Origin: Rosa chinensis
Lineage: Eukaryota > Streptophyta > Magnoliopsida > Rosales > Rosaceae
Length of the DNA stretch: 64,000 nucleotides
Assembly: GCF_002994745.2 (NCBI RefSeq)
Contig: NC_037092.1
Location: 85,480,824-85,544,823 of the forward strand
Direction of reading: 5' to 3'
In this document: one piece after another, positions 4,846 to 23,832 of the stretch
Position numbering within the stretch: the stretch's first letter is position 1
Layout of the letters: every line of letters begins with the position of its first letter
The notes under the pieces: model-generated
What the model was told of the DNA's origin: nothing
Seen by the model: only the letters and a program-made list of their open reading frames with translations
Database searches by the model: none
Translations under genes and position numbers: made by a program

Positions 4846-5346
4846 TGCTAGGGGCCGCACTTGTAATGCCGCAAGCAACCTTGTCCAGGGTCATTAGTTA
4901 AGCCTTTGGTTGGTTTGCTTGCGTGCTAGGGATGTTTTGGTAATTTACAAATTATGTAATTTATTTTATTTAGCAATTAGTCTCCTCGGCCTTTTTCATG
5001 TTTCCTCCTGCCAGGTTCATGTAAGGCCGATATGCTCTATAGGGAGGGGTTCCTAGTCGGCATAGTTTGGACTACGGAACTAGTATAGGTAAGCACATGT
5101 ACTTTTGCCTCCCTTACCGTCTTACCATCAATAAAAGAGGAATTGTTCTCTGATCTTTCCTTTCGATTATTCATTGTTCTTCGTGGTTGCCCCAACATTC
5201 ATATAATTGTGTTCTTGCTTGTCACTAGCACTATTTTAATATCGTGTGGCTTTCATTGTTCCTTGCAAGGTACTCACTTGGCTGACTTGCTTGCTAGCAA
5301 GTGCCGCACGGTCCACTTTGCGCATTGCAAAGTTCGGCCCGTGACA
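4846..5346 (+). repeat. Left (5') LTR of the Gypsy element
   Basis: 501 bp, starting TGCTAGGGGCC and ending CCGTGACA. It contains an AATAAA-like signal (atcaataaaagag, about 5129). It aligns with 10098-10625 but lacks a 27-bp segment seen there. Confidence 0.93.
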
Positions 5347-5348
5347 GT

Positions 5349-5360
5349 TGGTATCAGAGC
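5349..5360 (+). other. Primer-binding site (tRNA-iMet type)
   Basis: TGGTATCAGAGC lies two bases after the left LTR. This is the standard plant initiator-Met tRNA complement used to prime minus-strand DNA synthesis. Confidence 0.9.
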
Positions 5361-5386
5361 CAACTCGGCTCAAGAAGCTCACTACG

Positions 5387-8035
5387 ATGACAGGGAAGAT
5401 GACAAACCAACAAAGATTCGATTGGTATGACCAACAACTCGGAGAACTTGCGGGAGTGCCTGATAGGTTGATTGATATCACTAATGTGTTGGACCGCGTC
5501 GACCTAGATGAGTTGGCGGCGCGGATGGTAGAGGTGGAGAGCCTGAAGGACCGAGTTGTGACCCTTGAAAAACGTAAAGCTCGAGGTAGCGGAGGGGAGA
5601 GAAATGAGGAAGAAACTCCTGTTCTGAACGAGCAAATGGGGGCGATGAGTGATGCCCTTGACACACTCCAGGTGACCGTGGACAATATGGCGGAAGATGT
5701 CCGAGCCACCATTGATGCTTTCAGAAACGAGTTGGTGGAGATGAATACCAAGCTCAATCTGACCATCCGTGCGATGGGAAACCAGCCTGTGACGGACTAC
5801 ATGAAGGTAAAGATACCAGAACCTCAAGCTTTTGGAGGGGCGCGGGATGCCAAGGAGCTTGAGAATTACTTATTTGATATGGAGCAATACTTCCGAGCAG
5901 TGAAGCCAGATTCGGAAGAGGTGAAGGTGAACATGGCAACAATGTATTTGTCAGGATATGCTAAACTATGGTGGAGGACCAAGTATAATGACATACAAAG
6001 AGGGGTATGCACCATTGACACTTGGGAGGATCTTAAGAAGGAGCTCAAAGCTCAATTCTTCCCCGAGAATGTAGAGTACATTGCTAGAAGGCAACTAAGG
6101 GAGCTCAAGCACACCAACAACATCCGAGACTTTGTAAACAAGTTCTCGGTGCTCATGCTTGACATCCCAGACATGTCAGAGAAGGATCGGTTGTTCTATT
6201 TCCTGGAAGGCTTAAAGCCATGGGCGAGGACAGAACTTCAGCGGCAAAGGGTCCAAGATTTGGCCTCCGCACAGGCTGCTGCTGAAAGGTTGACGGACTA
6301 CACATTCGAGGAGAACTCTACCAAGAAGACTCAGCCATTTTCGAATGTGAATGTCAACAGAAATATAAGGCCTGGACCGGGTAGAAGTGGGGGAGCGGAG
6401 TCCAAATTTTCCAACTCAGGAGGAGGGGACAGGAGAGCAGTGAATGCGAGGGACACGGCAACGTCCAAGCCTGTTGCTTCGACAGGGGTCTTCACCCCTC
6501 AACCTTTTAATCCCTCAGGCTATGTTCCAAAGCCACTAGCATGCTTCTTATGCAGAGGACCACATAGAGTGAATGAATGCCCTCATAAGACTGCCCTCTC
6601 TGCCCTACAGGCTCATATTCACAGAAAAGAAATGGAGGATCAGCAAGAGCCAGAGGAGGAACCTAGTCACATGGGAGCTCTGAGATTCTTGGGTGCGGTG
6701 GAGAAGGGACCACAATCACCTAAGAAGGCCCAGGCTAAAGGCTTGATGTTCATAGATGGTAGTATTAATGGGAAAGTAGCCAAGAGCGTGATGGTTGACA
6801 CAGGCGCTACTCACAACTCTGTGTCAGAACCTGAAGCACGGAGGTTGGGGCTGAAGTTGGAGAAGGATGTTGGCCGCATGAAAGCTGTGAACTCTAAGGC
6901 CTCACCTACAACTGGACTATCTCAAGGGGTATCACTCAAGTTGGGTCACTGGCAAGGGAAGACCGACCTCGTAGTTGTCCAAATGGATGACTTTGATGTC
7001 ATATTAGGGATGGAGTTCTTATTGGCGAACAAAGCTATTCCCATTCCTAGTGCCCAACACTTACTTATTATGGGAGAAAGGCCGTGTGTGGTTCCGGCAA
7101 GAATAGAACAACCAAGTGAACCCCGTCTCTTGTCCGCCCTCCAGTTCAAGAAAGGCGTGAAGCGACATGAGCCTACCTATGTAGCAGTTCCCCTGATAAG
7201 GGATGAGACTAAAGGAGAAGTGATTCCGAAGGAGATTGAAGAGGTATTGGAGAGCTACGTAGATGTGATGCCTCCTGAACTTCCCAAAGAATTACCTCCA
7301 AGGAGGAGTGTGGACCACGAGATCGAACTGCTTCCGGGGGCCAAACCACCTGCAAAGGCACCTTACAGAATGGCTCCCCCAGAACTGGCGGAACTTCGAA
7401 AGCAGCTCGAAGACCTGCTCAGGGCGGGATTCATTAGGCCATCTAAAGCCCCCTTTGGTGCGCCCGTGCTGTTTCAAAAGAAGCATGATGGAAGTTGGAG
7501 ACTGTGTGTGGACTATCGGGCTCTCAACAAAGTCATGGTGCGCAACAAGTACCTGATCCCTCTGATTGCAGATCTGTTTGACCAACTCAGTGGTGCCAAG
7601 TATTTCACAAAGTTAGACCTCCGCTCGGGGTACTATCAAGTTCGTATTGCAGAAGGAGATGAACCCAAGACAACGTGCGTCACCCGCTCTGGCGCCTTTG
7701 AGTTCCTGGTGATGCCGTTCGGATTGACCAATGCGCCAGCCACATTCTGCACTTTGATGAACCAAGTCTTCCACGAATACTTAGATAAGTTCGTGGTAGT
7801 CTATCTGGATGACATAGTGGTGTACAGCTCTACCCTAGAAGAACACGTAGAGCACTTAAAGTTGGTGTTCCAACGGTTGCGGGACAATCAGTTGTATGTC
7901 AAGCGCGAAAAGTGCTCCTTCGCGCAAGTGACCATCAAGTTTCTAGGTCACATTATTGAAAGGGGTCAAATCAGGATGGATATGGAGAAAGCCCAAGAAT
8001 GTGAAAGAGCTACGTTCTTTTCTTGGGCTGGCTAA
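5387..8035 (+). pseudogene. Gypsy gag-protease-reverse transcriptase (frame broken at 3' end)
   Basis: I chose the ATG at 5387; the open frame extends upstream through the primer-binding site without an ATG. An N-terminal coiled-coil-like stretch is followed by a retrotransposon gag domain (roughly residues 140-305, with GYAKLWW and [10 protein letters not shown]). Then come a zinc knuckle ([14 protein letters not shown]-x2-C-x3-H-x4-C, near residue 390), an aspartic protease active site (VDTGATHN, near 470) and reverse transcriptase with [10 protein letters not shown] and the catalytic YLDDIVVYS. The frame ends about 45 bases after the RT fingerprint FLGHII because the sequence shifts frame at about 7991. 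Downstream coding continues in another frame. This looks like a deletion of roughly two dozen bases, not a programmed frameshift, since conserved residues between RT and RNase H are missing. Confidence 0.92.
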
Positions 8036-10103
8036 TTACTACCGACGTTTCATTGAGAACTACTCAAAGAAGACGACCCCCTTAACTGAACGCTTGAAGA
8101 AGGGAGTGACATGGGACTGGAGTACTAATTGTGAGAAGGCCTTTCAAGATTTGAAGAAGGCCGTGATGGAAGATCCGGTCCTTGCCTTACCCCACCTGAA
8201 CCAGCCATTTGAAGTCCAGAAAGATGCTTCTGACTTCGCCTTAGGGGGAGTTTTGCTGCAACAGGGGCATCCTGTTGCATATGAAAGTCATAAACTCTCG
8301 GAAGCTGAGAGGAGGTACGCGACTCAGGAGAAGGAGTTGCTAGCCGTAATTCACTGTTTGAGGACATGGCGACACTATTTGCTGGGGTCAAAGTTCCTTG
8401 TGAAGACAGACAATTCTGCAGTCAGCCACTTTCTGACCCAACCAAAGTTAACTCCAAAGCAAGCCCGATGGCAAGAGTTTCTCGCTGAGTTTGACTTCCA
8501 TTTTGAACACAAGGCTGGGCACACAAACCAAGTTGCTGATGCTCTAAGTCGCAAGGCTGACCTTGCCACCCTCAAGGTGTTGGCTGCTTTGTCGAGCAGC
8601 ATCGTTGCCACAGACATCAAGCAGCGTATCAAGGAGAGTCTGGATAAGGATTCTGTGGCGCAATCCCTCATGAAAATGGTGAAGGAAGGGAAGAGCCGTC
8701 GATTTTGGATAGAGGATGGCATATTGATGGCCAAAGGAGGACGAGTGTTTGTTCCGCGAGCTGACGGACTGCGAAGAATGCTCATGAGGGAGTGTCACGA
8801 CACCCTGTGGGCAGGTCACCCTGGATGGCAGAGGACCCACGCACTCCTCAAGCAAGGTTACTACTGGCCCCAGATGCGAGACGATGTCACAGAATACACC
8901 AAGACTTGCCTAACATGCCAGCAAGACAAGATTGAGCGCCAAAAGACTCCAGGGCTGTTAGAACCACTGTCTATTCCGACTCGCCCATGGGAGAGTGTCT
9001 CCCTTGACTTTATTACCAACCTCCCGAAGGTGGGAGACTTATCAGGCATCCTGGTGGTGGTTGACAGGTTTTCAAAGTATGCCACCTTTGTGCCAACCCC
9101 AAAGTATTGTTCGGCGGAAGACACAGCAAGCCTCTTCTTCAAGCATGTTGTAAAGTATTGGGGTGTGCCTCAGAACATAGTCAGCGATCGAGACACTAGG
9201 TTCTCGGGAACATTCTGGACCGAGCTGTTCAAGTTGCTCGGGTCTGAGCTCAACATATCTTCAAGTTATCACCCACAGACTGATGGGCAAACAGAAAGGT
9301 TCAACGGGATGTTGGAGGAGTACTTGCGCCATTTTGTTCATGCCAATCAACAGAATTGGGCGCAATTGCTCGATGTTGCACAATTTTGTTTCAACTCGAA
9401 GAAGAGCTCATCCACCAACAAGAGTGCTTTTGAAATTGTCACTGGCCAACAGCCTCTCTTGCCTCATACTGTGCAAGAAGTCTACAAAGGAGCAAATCCG
9501 CGTGCTTTCAACTTCACAAAAGAATGGAAGACTAATGTTGAAATCGCTCAAGCCTACTTAGAGAAAGCGGCAGGGAGAATGAAGAAGTGGGCAGATCAAG
9601 GCCGCAAGCCCAGGGAGTTTCAAGCAGGGGACATGGTCCTTGTCAAGCTGCTCCCAGAACAACTCAGGTTCTTGCGTTCCAGGGACAAGCGTCTATTCAG
9701 GAAGTATGAAGGACCACTCCCCATCATTTCTAAAGTGGGGAAATGCTCCTACAAAGTCGATATTCCCGCCTGGATGAGAGTTCACCCCGTCTTCCATGTC
9801 AGCAACCTCAAGCCGCACCAGCCAGACCGTGAAGATCAAGTACGCAACCAGCCTGTTCGAGAGCACGTCGACATCAGACCCCCAAAGCCGAAAGAAGTGG
9901 AGGAGATCCTAGCAGAGAGAGTGACCCGAGTGTCAAGGCGGCCGTGCCAGCAGTTCCTGGTCAAGTGGAAGGGTCTTGGAGATGAAGAAACCAGTTGGGA
10001 GAACGCTGAAGTCCTGAAGAAGAAGTTCCAGCAGAAGATTGAAGACTTCAAGATCAAGGCAGTCGTCGAGAGCGCCGACAGCTTAAGTGGGGGAGGATGT
10101 TAG
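7992..10103 (+). pseudogene. Gypsy RNase H-integrase-chromodomain (second half of pol)
   Basis: This continues pol after the frame break and has no start codon of its own in a sensible place. It opens with the RT-RNase H connection ([16 protein letters not shown]). RNase H follows ([25 protein letters not shown]), then the integrase zinc finger (H and H in [11 protein letters not shown] and C in CLTCQ) and the integrase core ([26 protein letters not shown], giving the D-D-E triad). A chromodomain lies near the end ([24 protein letters not shown]). Chromodomains target integration to histone-marked chromatin. The stop TAG at 10101-10103 lies inside the first bases of the right LTR. Confidence 0.92.
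10086..10097 (+). other. Polypurine tract
   Basis: agtgggggagga sits immediately before the TG of the right LTR, the expected plus-strand priming site. Confidence 0.85.
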
Positions 10104-10625
10104 GGGCCGCACTTGTAATGCCGCAAGCAACCTTGTCTAGGGTCATTAGTTAAGCCTTTGGTTGGTTTGCTTGCGTGCTAGGGATGTTTTGGTAATTTAC
10201 AAATTATGTAATTTATTTTATTTAGCAATTAGTCTCCTCGGCCTTTTTCATGTTTCCTCCTGCCAGGTTCATGTAAGGCCGATATGCTCTATAGGGAGGG
10301 GTTCCTAGTCGGCATAGTTTGGACTACGGAACTAGTATAGGTAAGCACATGTACTTTTGCCTCCCTTACCGTCTTACCATCAATAAAAGAGGAATTATTC
10401 AATCATCTGTGCCCCGTGAGATTGTTCTCTGATCTTTCCTTTCGATTATTCATTGTTCTTCGTGGTTGCCCCAACATTCATATAATTGTGTTCTTGCTTG
10501 TCACTAGCACTATTTTAATATCGTGTGGCTTTCATTGTTCCTGGCAAGGTACTCACTTGGCTGACTTGCTTGCTAGCAAGTGCCGCACGGTCCGCTTTGC
10601 GCATTGCAAAGTTCGGCCCGTGACA
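10098..10625 (+). repeat. Right (3') LTR of the Gypsy element
   Basis: 528 bp, starting TGTTAGGGGCC and ending CCGTGACA. Relative to the left LTR it has an extra 27-bp block around 10400-10427 and about four substitutions. Confidence 0.93.
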
Positions 10626-12215
10626 GCGTAGCACCTTTGTTTTTTGTTTTTTTTTTTTTCTTCTTTTAATTGTTTCTAATATGGGTTCTGATCTTTTAAC
10701 TTTTTCTTTGTTGTAGAAAATTGATGATTATTTTGCTTTCATTTTGTAGGTTCTATGCAAAAAAGTATTTTGATTGTTTTCTTGCCATTGTTCCTGTTTC
10801 TGTTCTTTGATATTGGTTCATTGTTCCGTCTTGATTCAGGTATGGAATGTTGTGTTATTACTGATATTTCCTAATAGCATTGGTTTAAATTGATTTTGGA
10901 AATGCCGGTTTTGGTATATTATTCTAAGTATACTAAAGCGCATACACTGTTCCTAAGCACTGTTCATTCTACTGTTCATACAGTTAAATGACTGTGTTGC
11001 CCACGAACGCAATAGATAAAAACAGTGGTTGATTTTGGAAATGCCGGTTTTGCTCTTAGAGTTTACTGAATAAAGAAAACACCTGATATTGTAGTGCGTT
11101 CGTGAAGGTTCGATTGAAGGCTGGCATCGGACGAATATATCGATCTTCATCGTTAATACTGGTGGAGCAAGATTCTGAACAGATAACAAGTAAGACAGGT
11201 TGGGTTTACAGAGTTTATATGCCGGATTTTGTATTCTGGATTTGATGTAAGATTTCAAGGAGGAAAGATTAGGGACCTGGGTCTGGGTTTGTTTTGGATT
11301 GCTCTACCATGATTTCTAATTTGTTTCATTTATTCTTTGTCAGTTGTTGCCCAAGGGCGGGTGATTGAAGCAGAGGATATATACGGTTCGTATTTGGTGA
11401 GTTCCTTCCTGATTGCTCCATGCACCTCATTTTTGTTTGGTCTAATTATTTATGTCAAAACCCACGTTTCTATTCATCAAAATCGTTACTGGGTTTTGAA
11501 AATGATAAACCAAAAGAAGAACATGAAGGTGGCTCTTTTACAGTTTCATACCTTTTTTTGGATTCGTCTATATCGCTTGAGGAGGGATTAGATTGGAAGT
11601 TTCAGGCTTTGTTTTTGTTTATTAGTATTGAAATTTGGTTTTGACCTAAATGAAATTTTAATGTCTGCTCTTTAATTGATAGTCTGGTTGCGTTTTGTAA
11701 AACATAGATATTTTGACATCTGTTTTGCTTGCATTGTGACATGGATATCTGTTTTGCTTCCAACTGAATTTTTTTTGGCAGACTGAAATAGTAAATATAT
11801 GAATCATGCGAATGAAAATTATACAATAATGAGTGCAATTTTATGACTTTCTGTTCCAAGTTAAGATAATAATGATTGTTATGGTTTTAGTTTAATTGTG
11901 TATTGTTTGCACATCTTATATCATCATAGATCTTATATGATCCAAATGAAAATTAAGTTACAGTAAGCTGATGGTTGGAAAAAGGTTTTCGGAGCAGGTT
12001 AAAACTCTAAAAGGATTTATAGAGGCAAAATTTGTTGGTGAAATTCATTACGGTTTCCTATTGTGTTTTGATATAGGTTAGCAAACTTTTCTTATTGGGT
12101 TCGCCTCATTGAAATGTAGAAATGTAATCCACTTTTTGTATATAGAGAGAAAAACGAATAAATGGAAATTAAAAGCTTTCCAGGTGTAGGATGAAAATCT
12201 GGTGTTATTATTATT
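10626..12215 (+). other. No gene; contains a Helitron-5'-end-like phrase
   Basis: T-rich non-coding sequence. At 10925 it reads TCTAAGTATACTAAAGCGC followed by two actgttcat phrases. This resembles plant Helitron 5' termini (TC..TATACTA) and the sequences at 31190 and 33383. I find no matching 3' hairpin and CTRR end before the next element. Short ORFs at 11337-11644 show no recognisable domain. Confidence 0.4.
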
Positions 12216-12220
12216 CTGTG

Positions 12221-13781
12221 TGTTTGGACCCAAAATGAGCATTTTGGCCTGACAAGGCACGTCTTGGAAAAATTGAGCCAATGTCAGTGGCTCAAGCTAT
12301 ATATTGTCGACAAGTTCGAAATATATTATTTAGAGGCTAAATAAAGCCTACTATGGAGAATTATGCGAGCTGTAAGAAAAGGAAATGATGGAAGCATGGA
12401 AATGAAAAGTCAACTTTAGCATATTTTCTTACTTCGGCTAGGAGAAACCGAGCTAAACAAGGAAAGAGGGGCGGCAGACTAACCAAATGAAATCAAACTG
12501 AGCTGAAACTTTCCAAATTAATACTAGACATCCCAAGGATCATTTTTTATGAAGAGTTCCAGAGATATTTTTGAGTGGAAAGCCTTCAAACAATCAGCCC
12601 AATTTTCTACAGAAGCAAAACTGGAAAACTGGACCTGTAAGAGGTCCAGCAGCATTTCCGGCCCAACCACATGGAAATAAATTCTGAAATTTTACCACAG
12701 TAATCTACACTCATGGTGGATAATTTCATATGAAGAAGTTGAAGGCTTATACTGAATTCTTGTTGGAGAAATAATTGAAGGAATAAAGGGGCAGAGACTG
12801 ACCTAAAACCAGCTCAATATTCACATGTTCATGTTTCCTACCCACATGAAGAAAGCTAGGTGCTTTTCTCTTTTTTCTTGGATATATTTTTCTTCTACAA
12901 TCTCTTTAATAGATCATCATCACTTCCATGTTTCTGCACCTTCATGCTTTGCTTTCATTTCATCATTTCTCTATCTTTTCCATATTTTACAAATCACTTT
13001 CATACTCCACTTTCATTATTTTCTTCCACTCATCATTTCACTCTTCTTTTTCTTCCCTATATAAACACCTTCTCCTCTCATTCTAACACACACATTCACA
13101 ACAACAACAACATCTCTAAGATGATCTAAGTTCTCTCTAGAGCAACCTCTCTAAGAGCAACTCCTCTCCTTCTCTTTCTCTTATCGGTGATCACACTCTA
13201 AGTCCTAGTCTCCTCAGGAGCCGACTATTAGTGCCACCAAACCCTTTGTCAAAGTGCTTCGATCCTAGTCTCCTTGGGAGCCGATTGTAGTACCACAACC
13301 AAACACCAACACCAAGAGACATTCACAACAACAACATCTCTAAGATGATCTAAGTTCTCTCTAGAGCAACTCCTCTCCTTCTCTTTCTCTTACGGTGATC
13401 ACACTCCTAGTCCTAGTCTTCTCAGAAGCCGACTTTCAGTGCCACCAAACCCTCTGTCAACATACTTCGGTCCTAGTCTCCTCGGGAGCCGACGGTAGTG
13501 CTGCGACCACAACGGTTACAGAACCAGCCAAGCAAGGGTAACGCCCTAGCAACCCAGCCAAGCTAAAGTCACGCTTTAACAAGATCTCAATACTTCCCGG
13601 TGATTTCGCTCTGCTCAATCTGCAATATTGAGTATCGATTGTGTGAACAAGAAGAAACTACAGCAAAGTCCTCACAGAAGTCAGGTCAAGGGACACCCCC
13701 GACGACCGCACCCGAACGGTGCTGGCACGCCCGCGCATAAAAGAGACTGTTGACCAGCTACTACAAAACTGGAGCCAAACA
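12221..13781 (+). repeat. Left LTR of the gene-carrying element
   Basis: 1561 bp. The 3' part contains a promoter (TATATAAA at 13058-13065) and an internal tandem duplication of about 225 bp (acattcacaacaac..catctctaagatg at about 13091 and 13319), with repeated cctagtct.ctcnggagccga phrases. It lacks the 59-bp block found in the right LTR. Confidence 0.93.
13058..13065 (+). promoter_or_regulatory. LTR TATA box
   Basis: TATATAAA in the context tccctatataaacacct, repeated in the right LTR at 23044-23051. Transcription of the element would start about 30 bases downstream, near the cattctaacacacac stretch. Confidence 0.7.
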
Positions 13782-13784
13782 TTT

Positions 13785-13953
13785 TGGCACGCCCGGTGGG
13801 ACCACATCAGAAGCTTTTCTCTTGAAGCACATTCAACCACCGGGCTTGAAAACCAACATTTTGGCACGCCCGGTGGGACAAGGTTAGAATTTTTTTTTTG
13901 AAGACATTCAACCACCGGGCTTCAAAACAAACATTTTGGCACGCCCAGTGGGA
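13785..13953 (+). repeat. Triplicated primer-binding-site-like unit with hairpins
   Basis: The 17-base phrase TGGCACGCCCGGTGGGA begins three bases after the left LTR (13785-13801), recurs at 13862-13878, and recurs with one mismatch at 13937-13953, about 76 bases apart. Each later copy is preceded by its own inverted partner (ccaccgggc at 13837-13845 pairs with gcccggtgg at 13868-13876), so each could form a stem-loop. The first copy is in the right place to be the tRNA primer site. Confidence 0.75.
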
Positions 13954-14039
13954 CTACACTAGAGTCTTTTTGCATTTGTTCGCCATCGTTGAGATGCTAG
14001 GGGAAAATCTTTACCAAAAGAAATTCCTAAAGTGAATAG

Positions 14040-14927
14040 ATGGTCAATGTTGCCACCACTGGCGATACTACCATTAATGATGAGTTTATGCCTATTCCCA
14101 TCCCAGAGGGGGCAAGCATTGAGGAACAGCTCGCGATCATCATGGCCAACAGCGAGAGGCATAAAGAAAAGCAAGTCAGGGACAAGGCCAGTTTGATCTC
14201 AAAAACAAAGCAGAGGTTTCGCGATTGGGACCTACAAATTGAGCAGAACGCTCGAGAAGCTAGTGAACAATTCCATAAGCCTTTCTTGAGCAGCAACAAA
14301 CAGACCACTCAACATGCCGCGAACATCACATCTGAGTTCACAACCTTACGCGAGGAAGGTTCCAGCTTGGCTAATTCGCAGCAAGGCGAATTGGAATGTC
14401 AAAAACCTGCTCGCGAAGAGGTCATTTCTGAGACTAACTTTGCTATAGGTGGCAATCAACCTAAGGGTCTCACTGGTGAGTCACAGCCTTACACAGAGGC
14501 TGTGCATGGAAAATGTCATCAACAAGATTGTTCTTCTGACAATACAATTGTCTCTGAGCAAATATCTGATTTCTCTACTGATCAAGCCAAATATGTGGCT
14601 ACTGATCAGATGCATGGGGGGCAAGATATGACCCATGATCATCCCTTTGATCAAGAGAAGTTGGCGACTGTTGGCGACAAAGCCGATCTTGGGACACCGT
14701 CATCTCCCAAATTACAATTGAAGATCATGTTTCGCCAACCAACAAAGATACTTGGGGGGCAAGATTACTCCTCCTACGAGCCAAATTTTTCCCAAGTTTT
14801 TGATGAGAAGTATCTTTGTTCTTTTCCTACAAGCTCTCACAGGAGGGATTTTTACCGTACAAATTTTGATACATCGGAGCTTGGAATGAAGCATAGATGG
14901 CCTCCCCCATGGTCATCTAGAGGTTAG
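14040..14927 (+). CDS. Unknown 295-aa protein in gag position of the LTR element
   Basis: An intact ORF starting ATG at 14040 and ending TAG at 14925-14927, about 250 bases after the left LTR, where gag is expected. It is acidic and hydrophilic, with a charged, probably helical N-terminal third (about residues 28-95) and a C-terminal part with DYSSYEPNFSQVFDEKY and RHRWPPPW-like aromatic motifs. I see no zinc knuckle, no typical gag core and no protease site. It may be the N-terminal part of a gag-like protein kept by the non-autonomous family, or a protein of unknown role. Being intact while the PMD gene in the same element is decayed suggests it may matter for mobilisation. Confidence 0.55.
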   Translation: MVNVATTGDTTINDEFMPIPIPEGASIEEQLAIIMANSERHKEKQVRDKASLISKTKQRFRDWDLQIEQNAREASEQFHKPFLSSNKQTTQHAANITSEFTTLREEGSSLANSQQGELECQKPAREEVISETNFAIGGNQPKGLTGESQPYTEAVHGKCHQQDCSSDNTIVSEQISDFSTDQAKYVATDQMHGGQDMTHDHPFDQEKLATVGDKADLGTPSSPKLQLKIMFRQPTKILGGQDYSSYEPNFSQVFDEKYLCSFPTSSHRRDFYRTNFDTSELGMKHRWPPPWSSRG

Positions 14928-15552: not shown

Positions 15553-16134
15553 TCAGCGGCTCCAGAAACTTTTTCCAGCTTTGCCCTCGCAGGAAAGGCT
15601 GAGCTCAAGGGAAATGTAAGAGCCACCACCGTGACCACCACCTCCGTCGGAAGTAGTCTTCATGTTGCCAAACATTTCCTCACTGTGCATGGGAAACAGT
15701 GGAAGGGTTTTAACCTCCTGGTGATCTTCTCCTCGTTGTTCCATGATGGATCCACCAACATCAGCAGAACTAGTTGACCCAAAATTGAGATTAATGGATC
15801 CACCAACAAGCCCTGATCTTTGCTTGGGCACTTGAACATCCGAAGTGAGATTCTTCTTTTTCAGCTTCTCCCGAGCCCTTTGATTCTGGAACCAATAAAA
15901 GACGTTCTTGTTCTCGATCTGTCCGTACCATTTTAGCTGGAGAGTGATCCTCTGAACCTGCTCTACAGTGGGGGACTTAACTCCCTTGTCATCGTAAAGC
16001 TCCTTGAGGATTCTTATCTGATCTGTAGTAGGAAGCCACCTGGTATTACTCTGCTTGCAGTGCATGTTAGGACTACTCTCGGCGGCTTTGTTGCTTCCTC
16101 CATCCTCGGTTGGATGCCGGTTTTGTGGTTCCAT
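15553..16134 (-). CDS. WUSCHEL-like homeobox (WOX, WUS clade) ORF inside an LTR element
   Basis: A complete 193-residue ORF, ATG at 16134-16132, stop TGA at 15555-15553. Residues about 30-95 form a WUS-type homeodomain: TRWLPTTDQIRILKELY, SPTVEQVQRIT, then the recognition helix NVFYWFQNQRAREK, with the invariant W, F, N and R kept. Residues 143-150 are a perfect WUS box (TLPLFPMH). Residues 175-181 (SLELSLS) form an EAR-type repression motif near the C-terminus. WUS proteins are nuclear transcription factors that maintain stem cells in shoot meristems. This copy is shorter than typical WUS (about 290 residues), mainly between homeodomain and WUS box, and its helix reads QRAREK where WUS usually has HKARER. 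Plant WUS genes have introns; this copy has none, which suggests capture from an RNA copy. It runs antisense to the retroelement. Identification as WUS clade is confident; function is inferred. Confidence 0.9.
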   Translation of the reverse strand: MEPQNRHPTEDGGSNKAAESSPNMHCKQSNTRWLPTTDQIRILKELYDDKGVKSPTVEQVQRITLQLKWYGQIENKNVFYWFQNQRAREKLKKKNLTSDVQVPKQRSGLVGGSINLNFGSTSSADVGGSIMEQRGEDHQEVKTLPLFPMHSEEMFGNMKTTSDGGGGHGGGSYISLELSLSCEGKAGKSFWSR

Positions 16135-16300
16135 TGATGATGGATTAAAGAGAATGTGAGAATGAAAGAGTGATGATGATAAGTAATTAAGAAAGATTGA
16201 TGTTGATGAAACGATTTTGGGATTGGAAATTTGGGTTTACAATATGGAGGAAGATATAGGCATCCAAATGTCCGCTCTTGGATGGACGGTCAAAGAGAAG
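16135..16300 (-). promoter_or_regulatory. Putative leader/promoter of the WUSCHEL-like ORF
   Basis: On the minus strand, a TATA-like ctatatctt lies about 115-125 bases upstream of the ATG. It is followed by a pyrimidine- and A-rich leader with tcatcatcac and ctctttcattctcac phrases, and the ATG context catcaATGG is good. From about 16274 outward the sequence joins a unit that is repeated at 17732-17848, so the promoter could come partly from the retroelement rather than from the ancestral gene. Confidence 0.35.
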
Positions 16301-17731: not shown

Positions 17732-17848
17732 TGGATGGATGGTTAAAGAGTCAAACCGATGTCAGTAAATCGAGTGATTAATGCCTTAAATCTCGGAAAA
17801 GAAGGATTAGCAGCATGTGAGGAGACTGAACGGTTTTCGAGGGGGCCT
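17732..17848 (-). repeat. Repeated unit, copy c
   Basis: It matches the unit at 16274-16395 (cttggatggatggttaaagag, ccttaaatctcggaaaagaagg, cggttttcgaggggg). It overlaps the 3' end of the antisense PMD pseudogene, so the unit flanks both captured genes. Confidence 0.7.
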
Positions 17849-20800
17849 ACAAAGTTTGGCCTGCAAAGCTCAATTTCAAACAAAGTTCCTCCACGTGGCG
17901 TTTCGCTGTAATGGCACTAGCTTCGGCCTGAGTGGCCCGATCTCTGATACGGGCCAGGTTGCGGCCCATTTCTTCAGAAGCAGCCAAAGGTTCATCGAGT
18001 TGAGCTTCTTCTGCAACAATCGCATTCTCAACAAAGGCTAAATGGGCTTGGAGGTCCTCGATCTGAAGTTTGAAGTTGGACCTTTGGATTTGTAGTTCCC
18101 GCATGCGGATGGATCGTTCATTTAAAATATCACGGGAGATGTCCATTTCTTGAGAGACACTATTCAAAGCCTCTTGAGCGTCGTGAGCCTGAGTGTTCAC
18201 GGCCGATTGACGTCGGTGGGCCATATCAAGTTCATTCAGCAGAGAGTCGATAGCACTAAATTGACACAGAGTCAAAACCTTCTCCTGGCGAAGATACCTT
18301 AGAGCTTCCAAGACTCGCGGGAGGATGTCAGTCTCCAATACCTGAGGACCCAGATGTTCGTGAAGTACCATCTTAGCCTCATCGACAGCAGAAGGAGGAG
18401 TTACCTCCAACACCCTCATCAATCTCTTTTATCTGGTAGGAGGAGGAGGCGGCAGAGGCGCCACAGGATCACGAACCACCAATGCAAAAGGGTGGACAGC
18501 TTCCTTAGTTTCTTCATCTTCAACAGGTTGGTCTGTCCCTTCAGCCTCAGGGGAATCTGGAAACTCAACTAGCGGCTCACCATGGGCAAGTGGAGCAGAT
18601 TCAAGCACAGAGCCCTCAGCTTCGACGGTTGTCTCATTTGTTTGCGAGACTTGGGGGGCACCACCACCGTTAGTATCATTTTCCATCTCTGGGGCGACTG
18701 TCCCACCGATAAGACCAGCAGCATTTGCAGCCACCTCCTCGGTACAAACAGAATCTTAGTCAAATTCAGAAATGTCAGATAGCAGGGTTGGATCTAAAGG
18801 GAAATGGAAAGTAATGGCCAAACAGTGGCTTACCTCTCGAGCTGTCCGGTCGATATCTGGTACGTGGTCACCAAGAGGAAGAGGCCTCGCCTCTTTCACC
18901 TTTTGAACCTCTAGTGCCGCGAGAATCTCTGTCGTCATCAGTTCCTCATAAGCGGTAGAAGTCTCAGAGTGGCTTTCCATGCTTTCATCCTCCGAGGAGT
19001 TGTCATCAGAGATCGTTATTAGAATGGTAGGACCTTGCAGATGCTCTATAGTGGGAGATGGGAGAGGTGCCACAGGGTTAGTTGATGCTTGAACTAGCGA
19101 GATAATTGGCTCTTCTGCAGTGGCTGAGGGTCCAGCTTCGCTCAGGCGAGAGGGATCAGTGGTCCTTTGACGAACCCGTCAAAAGATACATAGTGAAAAT
19201 CCTGCCCAGATTTCAAAATTTAAATAGGATAAGACGGGGTCGGAGTTTACCAGTTGCATTCCCAGAGGTTCATCATCTTCAAAACTCTCTTCGACGAGTT
19301 GAGCTCGATCGCGTTTGCAAGCAAAGACAGCAGTGGCCTGTACGAGAAAAGAGTCATAACTCAAAAGGGGAGAAGCACCAAATATACAAGTTTGGGATCG
19401 TTCTTAACCAAATTACCTCAGCAGGATCTTCATCATGCGAAGACTCTCCCTTAGAAGTCTCCTCTGCTATTGCCTTTTTTTTCCCGACCTGAACAGAGGC
19501 TGTCCTGCTCCGGGTAGTTTGCTGCAAAACACACTCAGGAATAAGAACGAGAAAATCAACACAAGGAAATGGAATGGTGAAGAAAGACAAAAACTTACTG
19601 TTTCCCTAGCCTCGTGGATTTGTATCCCTGGACGCAATGAGCGAGAAGGTAGAATAGATCGCGGGGGTTGTTCTGCAGGTTTGGAGAAGCGCTCAAGAAT
19701 CTCGCGGTCCTCCGGACCAGGGCTACTCATGCCACGAAAGATCAGGACGAAGAGTTCGTCATATGGCAGGTCCTAACCGTTCACTGACACTTCTTTCCAC
19801 CAATCAGCATAGTCGTCATCGACATCGTTGAGGGGGTATAGCGCTCTGACCCAAGGGGGAATCACTATCAAAGTAAACTGACTCTGAAAGGGGGCAGACC
19901 CAGGTGGGGCTAATCTCCGCCAAGAGGTGTAATAATTGGCAGAATCAACCAGAGGCCAGGGTACCAACTGGGCCAACCCAAATTGGCGAGCGAAGTGGTT
20001 AGGGGCATAGAGCTCATAACTTACGCAGTCGGTGGTAAGACGAATATCCAAGCAGGAGATGGCGCGACGAAAGGCCAGGAGGGCTCTTTCGCTATGATCC
20101 CGTCCATTGGGTAGAAAGCCATCGTCAAGGGGAGGAGGGAAACGCCTAGAAAGGACTATTTTTGGGTCCGGCATCTCTCCCAGCAAGTACAAGTAAATAA
20201 AACACTCGGAGTAGGGAGGAGCTTGATACCTTACATTGCGGCAAAGCCAGATCCCCAAAAGGGAATCGACTGGAGGTTCCTTTGGAATATCATCGCGACG
20301 GAGGCGAGGGAAATAAATCTGCAGCCAAAAGGCAAGAATCCAGAAAGGACCACTAATGTCGGTATCGAAGGGGCGCATTACGGCCCTATAAAGGGAACGA
20401 TATAACGCACCCAATACAGGTTGCCCAAGGCCAACGCAAATACCATTGTAGAGAGCAGTGGCCAGAGAATTCCAGGGCCCAGTAGGTTTGTTGGAAGAAG
20501 TGCAAAAGATAAATTTGCAAAGCCAAAATTCCAGGAATGTGATACCTCCTGTATGGTCTCGCTAGGTGCAGTAATAGTCGCGCCAGAATGGGTAGGATTT
20601 TCTGTGATGCCCTCGACCAGCCATATCCATTCTCAAAGAAAATTGAATGCCATCAAATTGACCATGCACATAGGGGTCAAAGTCAATGGGCAACCCCGTG
20701 ATGGTAAGAACATCCAGCAGAGTTATGCTCATCTGCCCAAACCAGAAATCGAATGAATTGCTGGAGGTGTTCCAGAAGCAAAGAGCGGCGGCTAGCGGTG

Positions 20801-21230
20801 CAGGGCTAGTATTATGGGGAAGACAGAAGCATAGATCGATGGTTTGGGTGATACCCACCGCGTCCCATCAGTCCAAATCTCTCGCTCGGACCTCCTGATA
20901 CCAAACTTTTTCCTCGGGAGTGACAGTAGGCCAGAAGCCCACTTTCCTCCTTGGTCCCCAACTGCTAAAATCGCCAGGCACTTGCCGAAGAGCCGCTATG
21001 GGACGGCGGATGGGAAGCCCATAATAGGCTATAGCATCATCTGACAAACGATCGCGAGGTGTGGGACCCAGACTCGCTTGACTATCACCGCCACCAAAGC
21101 CCATCAGTCGGCTTCTCTCCTCTCCGGTTTGACGTCTACATCAAATACTCATGTTAGTCCGCCAGTTGAATGCGGCTTTCTCAGTGATTTCATCTGCCTG
21201 ATCGATAACGAATGGTTTCTTGGATGCCAT
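17847..21230 (-). pseudogene. Antisense plant mobile domain (PMD, aminotransferase-like) gene, decayed
   Basis: The minus-strand gene starts ATG at 21230-21228 (MASKKPFVIDQADEI). It contains PMD hallmarks: FWFGQMSITLLDVLTITGLP, EFWLCKFIFCTSS, QPVLGALYRSLYRAV and FWILAFWLQIYFP. C-terminal exons follow, separated by GT-AG introns (donor gtaagt near 19600, acceptor ttgcag near 19521), then a proline-rich exon and a long coiled-coil-like end (MMRVLEVTPPSAVDEAK onward, 18422-17847). In-frame stops are visible at 21143-21141, 20870-20868, 20564-20562, 19775-19773 and 18431-18429, so the copy is not translatable as one protein. PMD proteins occur both as host silencing factors (MAIL1/MAIN) and as passengers of plant transposons. 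Confidence 0.8.
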
Positions 21231-21522: not shown

Positions 21523-22207
21523 CCTTTTCTTACCACGGCAGGGCCAGCATAGCGGCCTGATGTTTTTTAATTAAAACATGATTAAAACCAATGCGGTTTT
21601 AGATGCTAAAGTTGCAGTAAGTGTGGTGGTTTCACTTGGTCACACGTAATGATGTCGATAGCCATGATCCAATCATCCTCTTCGGCATAAGACTCGCGAA
21701 GGATTAAATGACAGCAAATAGTTTGCTATTTTGCATCTTATGTCGCCAAGTACTATAGGCCTTGATCAAGTCAGGAAAGCGGCTCCAACCCCCTACATTT
21801 GAGAAAATCAACAGAGAGCCAGCGAACAAGGCAGATACTTGTTGCTATACACATGGCGAAGCAACCACCAAGGAAGAGAAGGATCCTCATTCGCGATCAA
21901 AAGCAGTCTCCTTCGCATGGGGGGCACGCTAAAGTTCTGATCTCCTAAAACCTGTCCAAGTTTCATCAATTCACGGCATACCAGACATCAGATCCATGGG
22001 GGGCAATAAAGTTGGCAAAGAAAGCGTCAGTTCATGACAAAGGCAATTCACTAGTGGCATTCAAGCTTTATGGCCTATTTAGAGGCCTATGTGGAAACAG
22101 TCAAGCCAATACAAGTGGCTTTGGAGCAACAACATTATAAGAGTAGTGCTGATTCAAGACCTCTTCAGTCAAGACGAAGACCTTTGACTTCGAGGTCTGG
22201 GGGGCAA
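21523..22207 (+). other. 3' non-coding end of the LTR element with polypurine tract
   Basis: No ORF is supported. The sequence has repeated ggggggca phrases (near 21920 and 22000), and the polypurine tract ctggggggcaa (22197-22207) sits directly before the right LTR. Confidence 0.65.
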
Positions 22208-23827
22208 TGTTTGGACCCAAAATGAGCATTTTGGCCTGACAAGGCACGTCTTGGAAAAATTGAGCCAATGTCAGTGGCTCAAGCTATATATTGTCGACAA
22301 GTTCGAAATATATTATTTAGAGGCTAAATAAAGCCTACTATGGAGAATTATGCGAGCTGTAAGAAAAGGAAATGATGGAAGCATGGAAATGAAAAGTCAA
22401 CTTAAGCACATTTTCTTACTTCGGCTAGGAGAAACCGAGCTAAACAAGGAAAGAGGGACGGCAGACTAACCAAATGAAATCGAAATGAGCTGAAACTTTC
22501 CAAATTAATACTAGACATCCCAAGGATCATTTCTTATGAAGAGTTCCAGAGATATTTTTGAGTGGAAAGCCTTCAAACAATCAGCCCAATTTTCTACAGA
22601 AGCAAAACTGGAAAACTGGACCTGTAAGAGGTCCAGCAGCATTTCCGGCCCAACCACATGGAAATAAATTCTGAAATTTTACCACAGTAATCTACACTCA
22701 TGGTGGATAATTTCATATGAAGAAGTCGAAGGCTTATACTGAAGTCTTGTTGGAGAAATAATTGAAGGAATAAAGGGGCAGAGACTGACCTAAAACCAGC
22801 TCAATATTCACATGTTCATGTTTCCTACCCACATGAAGAAAGCTAGGTGCTTTTCTTTTTCCTTGGATATATTTTTCTTCTACAATCTCTTTAATAGATC
22901 ATCATCACTTCCATGTTTCTGCACCTTCATGCTTTGCTTTCATTTCATCATTTCTCTATCTTTTCCATATTTTACAAATCACTTTCATACTCCACTTTCA
23001 TTATTTTTCTTCCACTCATCATTTCACTCTTCTTTTTCTTCCCTATATAAACACCTTCTCCTCTCATTCTAACACACACATTCACAACAACAACAACATC
23101 TCTAAGATGATCTAAGTTCTCTCTAGAGCAACCTCTCTAAGAGCAACTCCTCTCCTTCTCTTTCTCTTATCGGTGATCACACTCTAAGTCCTAGTCTCCT
23201 CAGGAGCCGACTATTAGTGCCACCAAACCCTCTGTCAAAGTGCTTCGATCCTAGTCTCCTTGGGAGCCGATTGTAGTACCACGACCAAACACCAACACCA
23301 AGAGACATTCACAACAACAACATCTCTAAGATGATCTAAGTTCTCTCTAGAGCAACTCCTCTCCTTCTCTTTCTCTTACGGTGATCACACTCCTAGTCCT
23401 AGTCTTCTCAGAAGCCGACTTTCAGTGCCACCAAACCCTCTGTCAACGTACTTCGGTCCTAGTCTCCTCGGGTGCCGACGGTAGTGCTGCGACCACAACG
23501 GTTACAGAACCAGCCAAGCAAGGTTAACGCCCTAGCAACCCAGCCAAGCTAAAGTCACGCTTTAGCAAGATCTCAATACTTCCCGGTGATTTCGCGCTGC
23601 TCAATCTACAATATTGAGTATCGATTGTGTGAACAAGAAGAAACTACAGCAAAGTCCTCACCACAAGGCATAAAGAATCTCGCGACGAGGTTGGTGCTCT
23701 CCTCGTCTACAATCGCTCGACAGAAGTCAGGTCAAGGGACACCCCCGACGACCGCACCCGAATTGTGCTAGCACGCCTGCGCATAAAAGAGACTGTTGAC
23801 CAGCTGCTACAAAACTGGAGCCAAACA
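22208..23827 (+). repeat. Right LTR of the gene-carrying element
   Basis: 1620 bp, starting TGTTTGG and ending AAACA, followed by the target duplication CTGTG. It is longer than the left LTR by a 59-bp block (near 23662-23720). TATA box at 23044-23051. Confidence 0.93.
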
Positions 23828-23832
23828 CTGTG

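What the first reader, a model, noticed from the sequence alone, without database searches (positions are those of the whole stretch)
15553..16134. Intact WUSCHEL-like homeobox ORF carried inside an LTR retroelement
A complete, intron-free, WUS-clade reading frame (homeodomain, TLPLFPMH WUS box, SLELSLS EAR motif) sits antisense between the gag-position ORF and the PMD gene of an LTR element with perfect target duplication. WUS controls stem-cell identity, so a mobile, multi-copy version could act as a regulator or as a competitor of the native gene. Nearby passenger coding (PMD) has five in-frame stops while this ORF has none. I know of no described retroelement family carrying WUS.
Basis: partly seen in the sequence, partly recalled or inferred. 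Interest (0 to 1): 0.93.

Follow-up and report, generated by a model that had tools for sequence, protein, structure and literature searches.

The report
Rose retrotransposon carrying stem-cell gene WUSCHEL
In roses, a jumping DNA element has picked up an intron-free copy of WUSCHEL, the plant gene that defines shoot stem cells, and spread it as a mostly readable gene to a large number of places in the genome, which probably explains why roses were reported to have hundreds of such genes.

Summary
Confirmed. ORF 16134-15553(-) is an intact WUSCHEL-type protein (homeodomain, WUS box, EAR-like motif) inside an 11.6-kb LTR element with a 5-bp TSD.

It belongs to a large family. Of 20 further copies fetched, 18 show a complete matching LTR with the ORF antisense; all 10 with both LTRs have perfect, mutually different 5-bp TSDs; one LTR pair is identical. 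A second LTR family carries a more diverged WUS ORF, mostly on C2.

Host WUS, with three exons, lies at C2:11.71 Mb. An element-type copy lacks its introns exactly and keeps about 230 nt of leader, so spliced RNA was captured, antisense.

Purifying selection is supported but moderate: ORF less diverged than flank in 19 of 19 copies, motif residues nearly invariant, omega 0.45 (NG86, 22 copies) and 0.77 (codon ML, 42 copies). Against it: 12 of 42 copies have stops, one clade is near neutral, the non-coding leader is conserved too.

This offers a mechanism for the unexplained 381-gene WOX expansion published for rose. No expression data were examined here; benefit to the element is inferred.

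The parts
12216..12220 (.). target-site duplication CTGTG, left
12221..13781 (+). 5' LTR, TG...CA
13785..13803 (+). putative primer-binding site TGGCACGCCCGGTGGGACC, read from the sequence; tRNA not assigned
   Evidence: sequence; assignment is inference
14040..14927 (+). gag-position ORF, 295 aa, no Pfam match; four database relatives (two named Rosa, two unnamed)
15553..16134 (-). mobile WUSCHEL-type ORF, 193 aa, intron-free, antisense to the element
15865..16044 (-). homeodomain (residues 31-90); three helices modelled, closest solved structures are WUS homeodomain on DNA
15685..15708 (-). WUS box TLPLFPMH (residues 143-150)
15595..15612 (-). EAR-like motif SLELSL (residues 175-180)
15553..15594 (-). 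C-terminal tail and stop codon without detected similarity to native WUS: element-derived
16135..16263 (-). captured WUS leader sequence upstream of the ATG, also conserved across copies
17847..21230 (-). PMD (plant mobile domain) gene remnant with in-frame stops
22194..22207 (+). putative polypurine tract GGTCTGGGGGGCAA
   Evidence: sequence; assignment is inference
22208..23827 (+). 3' LTR
23828..23832 (.). target-site duplication CTGTG, right

Best explanation
In the rose lineage a spliced WUSCHEL RNA was copied, antisense, into a non-autonomous LTR retrotransposon. The element then amplified as at least two LTR families into a large number of copies, and the WUS reading frame stayed under protein-level purifying selection. 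Shown here: LTRs and TSDs (window family), antisense position, exact absence of introns in a related copy, a second LTR family, conservation of homeodomain, WUS box and EAR-like motif, lower divergence than flanking DNA, dN/dS below 1. Inferred: capture by a template switch onto spliced WUS mRNA during plus-strand DNA synthesis, which would give the antisense orientation. Also inferred: the ORF works as an accessory gene of the element, transcribed antisense from the captured leader or nearby sequence. Its product would be a small nuclear homeodomain protein that recruits TOPLESS-type corepressors (recalled property of the WUS box and EAR motif, from no call) and changes transcription of host or element in shoot stem cells, the cells from which a plant's germ line derives (recalled), to the element's benefit.
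For: Same genome: 214 matches to the ORF with only 150 of 694 candidates scored. Of 20 fetched copies, 16 have a complete matching 5' LTR, 12 a complete 3' LTR, 18 at least one; all 10 with both have perfect 5-bp TSDs, all different, and in one the LTRs are identical, 0 of 1268. Second family: L049 has direct repeats 98.8% identical over 741 bp around an antisense WUS ORF. Of ten same-strand repeat pairs 5.5-7.2 kb apart that I read, five (L049 included) bracket a WUS ORF listed, each antisense. Spliced origin: native WUS has three exons; L071 runs straight across both intron sites, L073 and L074 across the second. L071's flank on one side is 83% identical to the window's element over 1.2 kb. 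Selection: ORF mismatch 3.0% against 5.7% in adjacent non-coding DNA, lower in 19 of 19 copies, Wilcoxon p 3.8e-6; indel events 0.33 per kb against 2.6 and 4.4 in two non-coding stretches. Averaged by me over the 21 copies tabled, synonymous difference from the window is 0.057, as in the flank, and nonsynonymous 0.025. NG86 omega 0.45, codon bootstrap 0.30-0.69, 22 copies. Codon ML omega 0.774, about 7.5 in 2 lnL over omega 1 on the grid tried, 42 copies. 42 of 42 keep frame through the EAR-like motif. F82, N84, A87, E89, L144, L146, F147, P148, L178, L180 are invariant in 42. 14 of the 150 or so listed matches to the second-family protein have a stop.
Against: ML omega 0.77 is not far from 1. 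Singleton and shared variants do not differ significantly in N/S (82/35 against 86/49, Fisher p 0.35). L064 and L067 give omega 0.89 and 0.83 against native WUS (homeodomain 0.92 and 1.13) and 1.47 against each other. The linker has omega 1.0 and EAR plus tail 0.64. 12 of 42 copies have stops. R88 is lost in 5 and Q83 changed to V in 6 of 42. The non-coding leader is also conserved (3.5% against 5.7%, lower in 18 of 19), so low divergence is not limited to coding DNA. Indels in the ORF were too few to show a multiple-of-three excess (2 of 4 aligned events against 14 of 102 in non-coding, p 0.11). Three copies (L063, L066, L070) end in a different tail. Copies were found by a protein search, which favours open frames. 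WUS-type sites (TGAA, TAAT) are not enriched in the LTR or upstream of the ORF. No transcript was seen; PMC11405225 reports 359 of 364 rose-only WOX genes nearly silent in rooting cuttings.
Confidence: 0.62

Rival explanations
1. Passenger: the WUS copy was captured by chance and rides along without function; frames look intact because the amplification is recent.
For: Codon-ML omega 0.77; near-neutral singleton variants, N/S 2.34 against a neutral 2.52 at kappa 4.76; 12 of 42 copies with stops; conserved non-coding leader; near-silent in one expression study (PMC11405225); young LTRs. By simulation of substitutions alone, a stop-free frame survives with probability 0.18 and 0.07 over half of dS 0.159 and 0.272.
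Against: ORF less diverged than its flank in 19 of 19 and far fewer indels. Motif residues nearly invariant. Frames open across dS about 0.27 (native to window) and 0.48 (window to L049); survival without stops over half of the latter has probability about 0.02 per lineage before counting frameshifts.
Confidence: 0.22
2. RNA-level role: antisense transcripts or small RNAs from the element act on native WUS or on the element's own genomic RNA; the protein is incidental.
For: The captured piece includes leader and coding sequence similar to native WUS (83-91% in aligned pieces), lies antisense to the element's genomic RNA, and its leader is conserved.
Against: Nonsynonymous change is held below synonymous change, which an RNA effect would not need.
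Confidence: 0.1
3. Host benefit: roses recruited copies as ordinary genes and selection acts on single loci.
For: PMC11405225 names five clade I-V genes with transcript counts above 10 in three or more stages.
Against: The ten copies with both LTRs are independent insertions with their own TSDs and little-diverged LTRs; matches lie on all seven large contigs.
Confidence: 0.04
4. Gene-family growth by whole-genome or segmental duplication, as hypothesised in PMC11405225.
For: Proposed in print (section 4.1).
Against: That paper found no collinear pairs within rose; here the copies examined are intron-free and LTR-bounded.
Confidence: 0.02

Closest known systems
WUSCHEL (WUS clade of WOX homeobox genes)
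   Same: Homeodomain, WUS box and EAR-like motif; descends from rose WUS
   Different: Intron-free, internal deletions, element-derived C-terminus, inside LTR elements, multi-copy
Antisense additional ORFs (aORFs) of plant LTR elements: Retand, Grande gene23, RIRE2 (seen: passages of PMC7264820 and PMC11963269, and section 6 of the former)
   Same: Extra ORF antisense to the element; PMC11963269 says its TRP28 protein probably binds DNA
   Different: [quoted passage not shown] here the donor gene is identified. Position also differs: next to the gag-position ORF, not between pol and 3' LTR
Gene-transducing LTR elements such as maize Bs1 (as cited in PMC7264820)
   Same: Host gene sequence captured in an LTR element
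   Different: PMC7264820: usually sense and in one or a few copies; here antisense, two LTR families, many copies, frame conserved
Orchid Gypsy elements with AlkB RNA demethylase (seen: abstract and passages of PMC9289625)
   Same: Host-type domain fixed in an LTR lineage, there shown active in vitro
   Different: Enzyme on RNA in 25-kb elements; here a developmental transcription factor in an element with no pol domain detected
Gypsy elements with PMD (seen: passages of PMC9289625)
   Same: PMD gene present
   Different: PMD is broken in this copy, and the L049 stretch has no DNA similarity to the window's PMD part

Membership tests
WUSCHEL / WUS-clade WOX | Homeodomain of WUS type | tested here: met
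   (best hits 6ryl and 6ryd, TMt 0.92-0.94 for the first three rows, 60-62% identity)
WUSCHEL / WUS-clade WOX | WUS box TLxLFPxx | tested here: met
   TLPLFPMH in the ORF; T, L, L, F, P invariant in 21 aligned proteins, mobile and native
WUSCHEL / WUS-clade WOX | EAR-like motif near the C-terminus | tested here: met
   SLELSL
WUSCHEL / WUS-clade WOX | Multi-exon gene with native C-terminus | tested here: not met
   intron-free; last residues from the element
WUSCHEL / WUS-clade WOX | Maintains stem cells, binds TOPLESS | not testable with these tools
   needs plants and binding assays
LTR retrotransposon | Paired LTRs with TG...CA ends and target-site duplication | tested here: met
   (window and 10 further copies; L047's 5' LTR begins TA)
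LTR retrotransposon | PBS and PPT next to the LTRs | tested here: inconclusive
   plausible sequences at both places; tRNA not assigned
Autonomous LTR retrotransposon (gag-pol) | Reverse transcriptase, integrase, protease, gag domains | tested here: not met
   all 13 other stop-to-stop frames of 100 aa or more in the internal region scanned: PMD in two, weak sub-cutoff matches to DUF2193 and Asp_Arg_Hydrox, no gag or pol family
Retand-type antisense aORF | TRP28 (PF04195) ORF between pol and 3' LTR | tested here: not met
   no such Pfam match in those 13 frames
Transduced host gene in an LTR element | Donor host gene identifiable, introns removed | tested here: met
Transduced host gene in an LTR element | Transcript made and translated | not tested
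   no RNA or protein data available

The most novel reading that the evidence does not exclude
A retrotransposon that uses a stem-cell master regulator as its own accessory gene: the element-encoded WUS protein acts in the shoot stem-cell niche, from which the germ line comes, either holding cells in a stem state or lifting silencing there. This would raise transposition into the next generation and, as a by-product, alter meristems and flowers in roses. It would also show where antisense accessory ORFs of plant retroelements can come from.
Probability: 0.2. Interest if true: 0.97.

Novelty: new variant of a known kind. Interest (0 to 1): 0.88.

Why it matters
[quoted passage not shown] Many entries annotated as WUSCHEL-like genes are then probably retroelement ORFs, which affects gene-family counts and expression studies in rose. 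It gives a traceable origin for an antisense accessory ORF, a class whose origin PMC7264820 calls mostly unknown. If the protein works, a mobile element carries the host's stem-cell switch. In the searches (open-licence PMC papers only; listings seen, few papers opened) I found no report of a WUS-carrying retroelement.

Tried and rejected
Tried without result: related loci in viral contigs and plasmids, no match. Search for long proteins that fuse WUS to other sequence: two hits, neither named Rosa. Tails of odd rose gene models against the window: no convincing match outside the ORF. WUS-site enrichment in the LTR and upstream of the ORF: none. A bacterial promoter scan does not apply to a plant and is ignored. 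only waited.

Rejected: chance ORF (homology, structure and copy number); native gene with a nearby element (the ORF is inside LTRs with TSD); low mutation or gene conversion as the reason for low ORF divergence (synonymous difference from the window averages 0.057 over the 21 copies tabled, the same as the flank's 5.7%); whole-genome duplication.

Dropped before counts: stop codons were masked as missing. In one search codon columns with more than half gaps were left out (193 kept). L052 had lost its stop and was cut at 582 nt. L049 and L050 were left out of the 42-copy counts. In one search two of 21 loci had no usable flank match and were left out of the ORF-flank comparison. 31 variants could not be classified. 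The 42 copies (22, 20) are ones I chose from the list, all with one full or nearly full protein match, so frameshifted copies are under-represented; one search also lists some partial matches, and a pair at C7:2201474 and C7:2201843 that looks frameshifted.

Full report
What is there. The minus-strand ORF 16134-15553 is complete and has 193 codons. It has a homeodomain, and its nearest solved relative is WUSCHEL by sequence and by fold. In an AlphaFold2 model three helices lie in residues 37-98, with block means of pLDDT 89-95 over residues 31-90 and mostly below 60 elsewhere; the top Foldseek hits are WUS homeodomain on TAAT and TGAA DNA. The WUS box TLPLFPMH and an EAR-like SLELSL follow. 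The ORF lies antisense inside an element with LTRs 12221-13781 and 22208-23827, K2P 0.014, TG...CA ends and TSD CTGTG on both sides. The 13 other stop-to-stop frames of 100 aa or more in the internal region gave no gag or pol family; two carry PMD pieces and two have weak sub-cutoff matches to unrelated families. The element looks non-autonomous.

Whose genome. The best 26 database relatives (P0002-P0027) are all named Rosa chinensis or Rosa rugosa (120 of 355 hits were listed). The window's assembly has 515 Mb, and its contigs C2 and C7 have exactly the lengths of contigs behind Rosa chinensis proteins. P0103 bears 'Chr2' in its source name and lies on the 88,556,329-base contig, so C2 is chromosome 2. 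The species is inferred from this.

Many copies, and they moved. The same genome gave 214 matches to the protein with 150 of 694 candidates scored, and the 5' LTR gave 91 matches with 40 of 4238 scored. I fetched 20 copies with identities from 87 to 99%. Relative to the LTR direction the ORF is antisense in each copy where an LTR was found. 16 have a complete matching 5' LTR, 12 a complete 3' LTR, 18 at least one; one shows only part of an LTR within the stretch fetched and one shows none. All 10 with both LTRs have perfect 5-bp TSDs, ten different ones. LTR differences in these range from 0 of 1268 to 36 of 1304. These are independent insertions, some very recent.

A second family. More distant WUS ORFs sit in another LTR family. 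L049 has repeats 98.8% identical over 741 bp, 7 kb apart, with an antisense WUS ORF between; L050 shows only a 180-bp repeat. A search with the L049 repeat gave 55 matches, mostly on C2, with 40 of 5735 candidates scored. Of the ten same-strand pairs 5.5-7.2 kb apart that I read from it, five (L049 included) bracket a WUS ORF listed, each antisense and roughly 2.2-2.5 kb from the 5' match; for the other five no ORF was listed, but only 150 of 711 candidates were scored there. I could not check TSDs for this family. The call reports 151 matches to this protein; 14 of those listed have a stop. That the remaining rose-only WOX genes are element-borne is likely but not shown.

Origin. Native WUS lies at C2:11711808-11713110(-). 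It has three exons, with a spliced CDS of 900 nt that translates without internal stop. The copy L071 is 94-97% identical to it in three pieces and lacks both introns exactly; L073 and L074 cross the intron-2 site in the same way. L071 begins about 230 nt upstream of the start codon and loses similarity about 20 nt before the native stop; the C-terminus and stop codon come from element sequence. L071's flank on one side is 83% identical to the window's element over 1.2 kb, so it is probably an older, full-length form of the same capture; it has three stops and its own LTRs were not looked at. The window's ORF has since lost the middle of the protein. Removal of introns, antisense orientation and truncation at the 3' end fit a template switch onto spliced WUS mRNA during plus-strand synthesis; that step is inferred.

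Selection. (a) Against the window, ORF mismatch averages 3.0% and the adjacent non-coding stretch 5.7%, lower in 19 of 19 copies (p 3.8e-6); indel events are 0.33 per kb in the ORF against 2.6 and 4.4 in two non-coding stretches, but too few to show an excess of multiples of three (2 of 4 against 14 of 102, p 0.11). (b) NG86 over 22 copies: omega 0.45, bootstrap 0.30-0.69; homeodomain 0.31, WUS box 0.23, linker 1.0, EAR plus tail 0.64; from the table of that call I average a synonymous difference of 0.057 and a nonsynonymous one of 0.025 from the window over 21 copies, so the synonymous value equals the flank. (c) Codon ML over 42 copies: omega 0.774 with kappa 4.76; on the grid tried omega 1 loses about 7.5 in 2 lnL. 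The higher ML value allows for the transition bias and is the safer one. (d) All 42 keep frame through the EAR-like motif; three end in a different tail; 12 have one or more stops. (e) Singleton variants are near neutral (N/S 2.34, neutral 2.52) and shared ones lower (1.76), but the difference is not significant, p 0.35. (f) Between deep lineages: window to native 0.63 (homeodomain 0.41), window to L049 0.47; but L064 and L067 give 0.89 and 0.83 to native, and 1.47 to each other. (g) In a simulation of substitutions alone a stop-free frame survives half of dS 0.48 with probability about 0.02, and shorter spans with 0.07-0.18. (h) In 42 copies F82, N84, A87, the WUS-box core and two EAR leucines are invariant and W81 is intact in 41 (a stop in one), while R88 is lost in 5 and Q83 altered in 6. 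(i) The non-coding leader is also conserved, lower than flank in 18 of 19 copies, which may mean a kept promoter but also shows that conservation is not limited to coding DNA. Together this supports moderate protein-level selection, with much neutral decay after insertion. The copies were found by protein search, which biases towards open frames.

How it may work. Inference: an accessory gene of the element, coding a small nuclear homeodomain repressor made from the antisense strand. No binding-site enrichment in the LTR or leader supports a direct autoregulatory loop, so action on host genes in stem cells is at least as likely. No expression data were examined here. PMC11405225 reports almost no expression for 359 of 364 rose-only genes during rooting; meristem and germ-line tissue are the ones to look at.

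Relation to what is in print. PMC11405225 (abstract, its sections 2, 3.2, 3.3 and 4 read, passages searched) counts 381 WOX genes, 364 in clades found only in rose, 226 on chromosome 2, no collinear genes within rose, and asks for further evidence; the string 'transpos' does not occur in its main text. Its clade V motifs resemble the second family here. PMC7264820 (passages and section 6) calls the origin of most antisense aORFs unknown. PMC11963269 (passages) and PMC9289625 (abstract and passages) describe other antisense or extra domains; neither holds WUSCHEL or homeobox in the searches I made. My paper searches showed no WUS-carrying retroelement; they cover open-licence PMC papers only.

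Verdict. It is a new variant of a known kind: host-gene capture by an LTR element, here antisense, amplified in at least two families, with a stem-cell master regulator as cargo. The function for the element is the open question.

Noticed in passing
L072 901-1271 on the reverse strand (native WUS upstream region, C2:11.71 Mb): The native rose WUS upstream region holds an insertion of about 355 bp between two copies of a 16-bp direct repeat, beginning with a T run, SINE- or LINE-like by eye; the captured copy L071 lacks it, so it came after the capture or was not in the donor allele.
   Followed up: partly
L049 5988-6560 and L050 3820-4398: The second family carries a sense frame of about 190 aa containing MARTKVTPRRG, where the window's element has PMD; its start resembles a histone H3 tail by eye only, and no search was made.
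   Followed up: no
proteins P0007, P0014, P0022: Some rose WUS-like proteins carry in-frame tandem repeats of a GGSINLNFGSTSST-like unit in the linker, as if the linker grows and shrinks by whole units.
   Followed up: no
window 13778-13954: The sequence with the putative primer-binding site is tandemly repeated just inside the 5' LTR; several copies show more such repeats.
   Followed up: no
window 4846-10626: A separate element with long gag-pol-like frames (5345-8035 and 7947-10103) lies just upstream, flanked by direct repeats 94% identical over 529 columns, one gap included.
   Followed up: no
P0028 and P0124: A WUS-like protein and a relative of the gag-position ORF both come from an ENA contig listed as 3015 bases long; possibly the same contig, which would link the two ORFs independently.
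   Followed up: no
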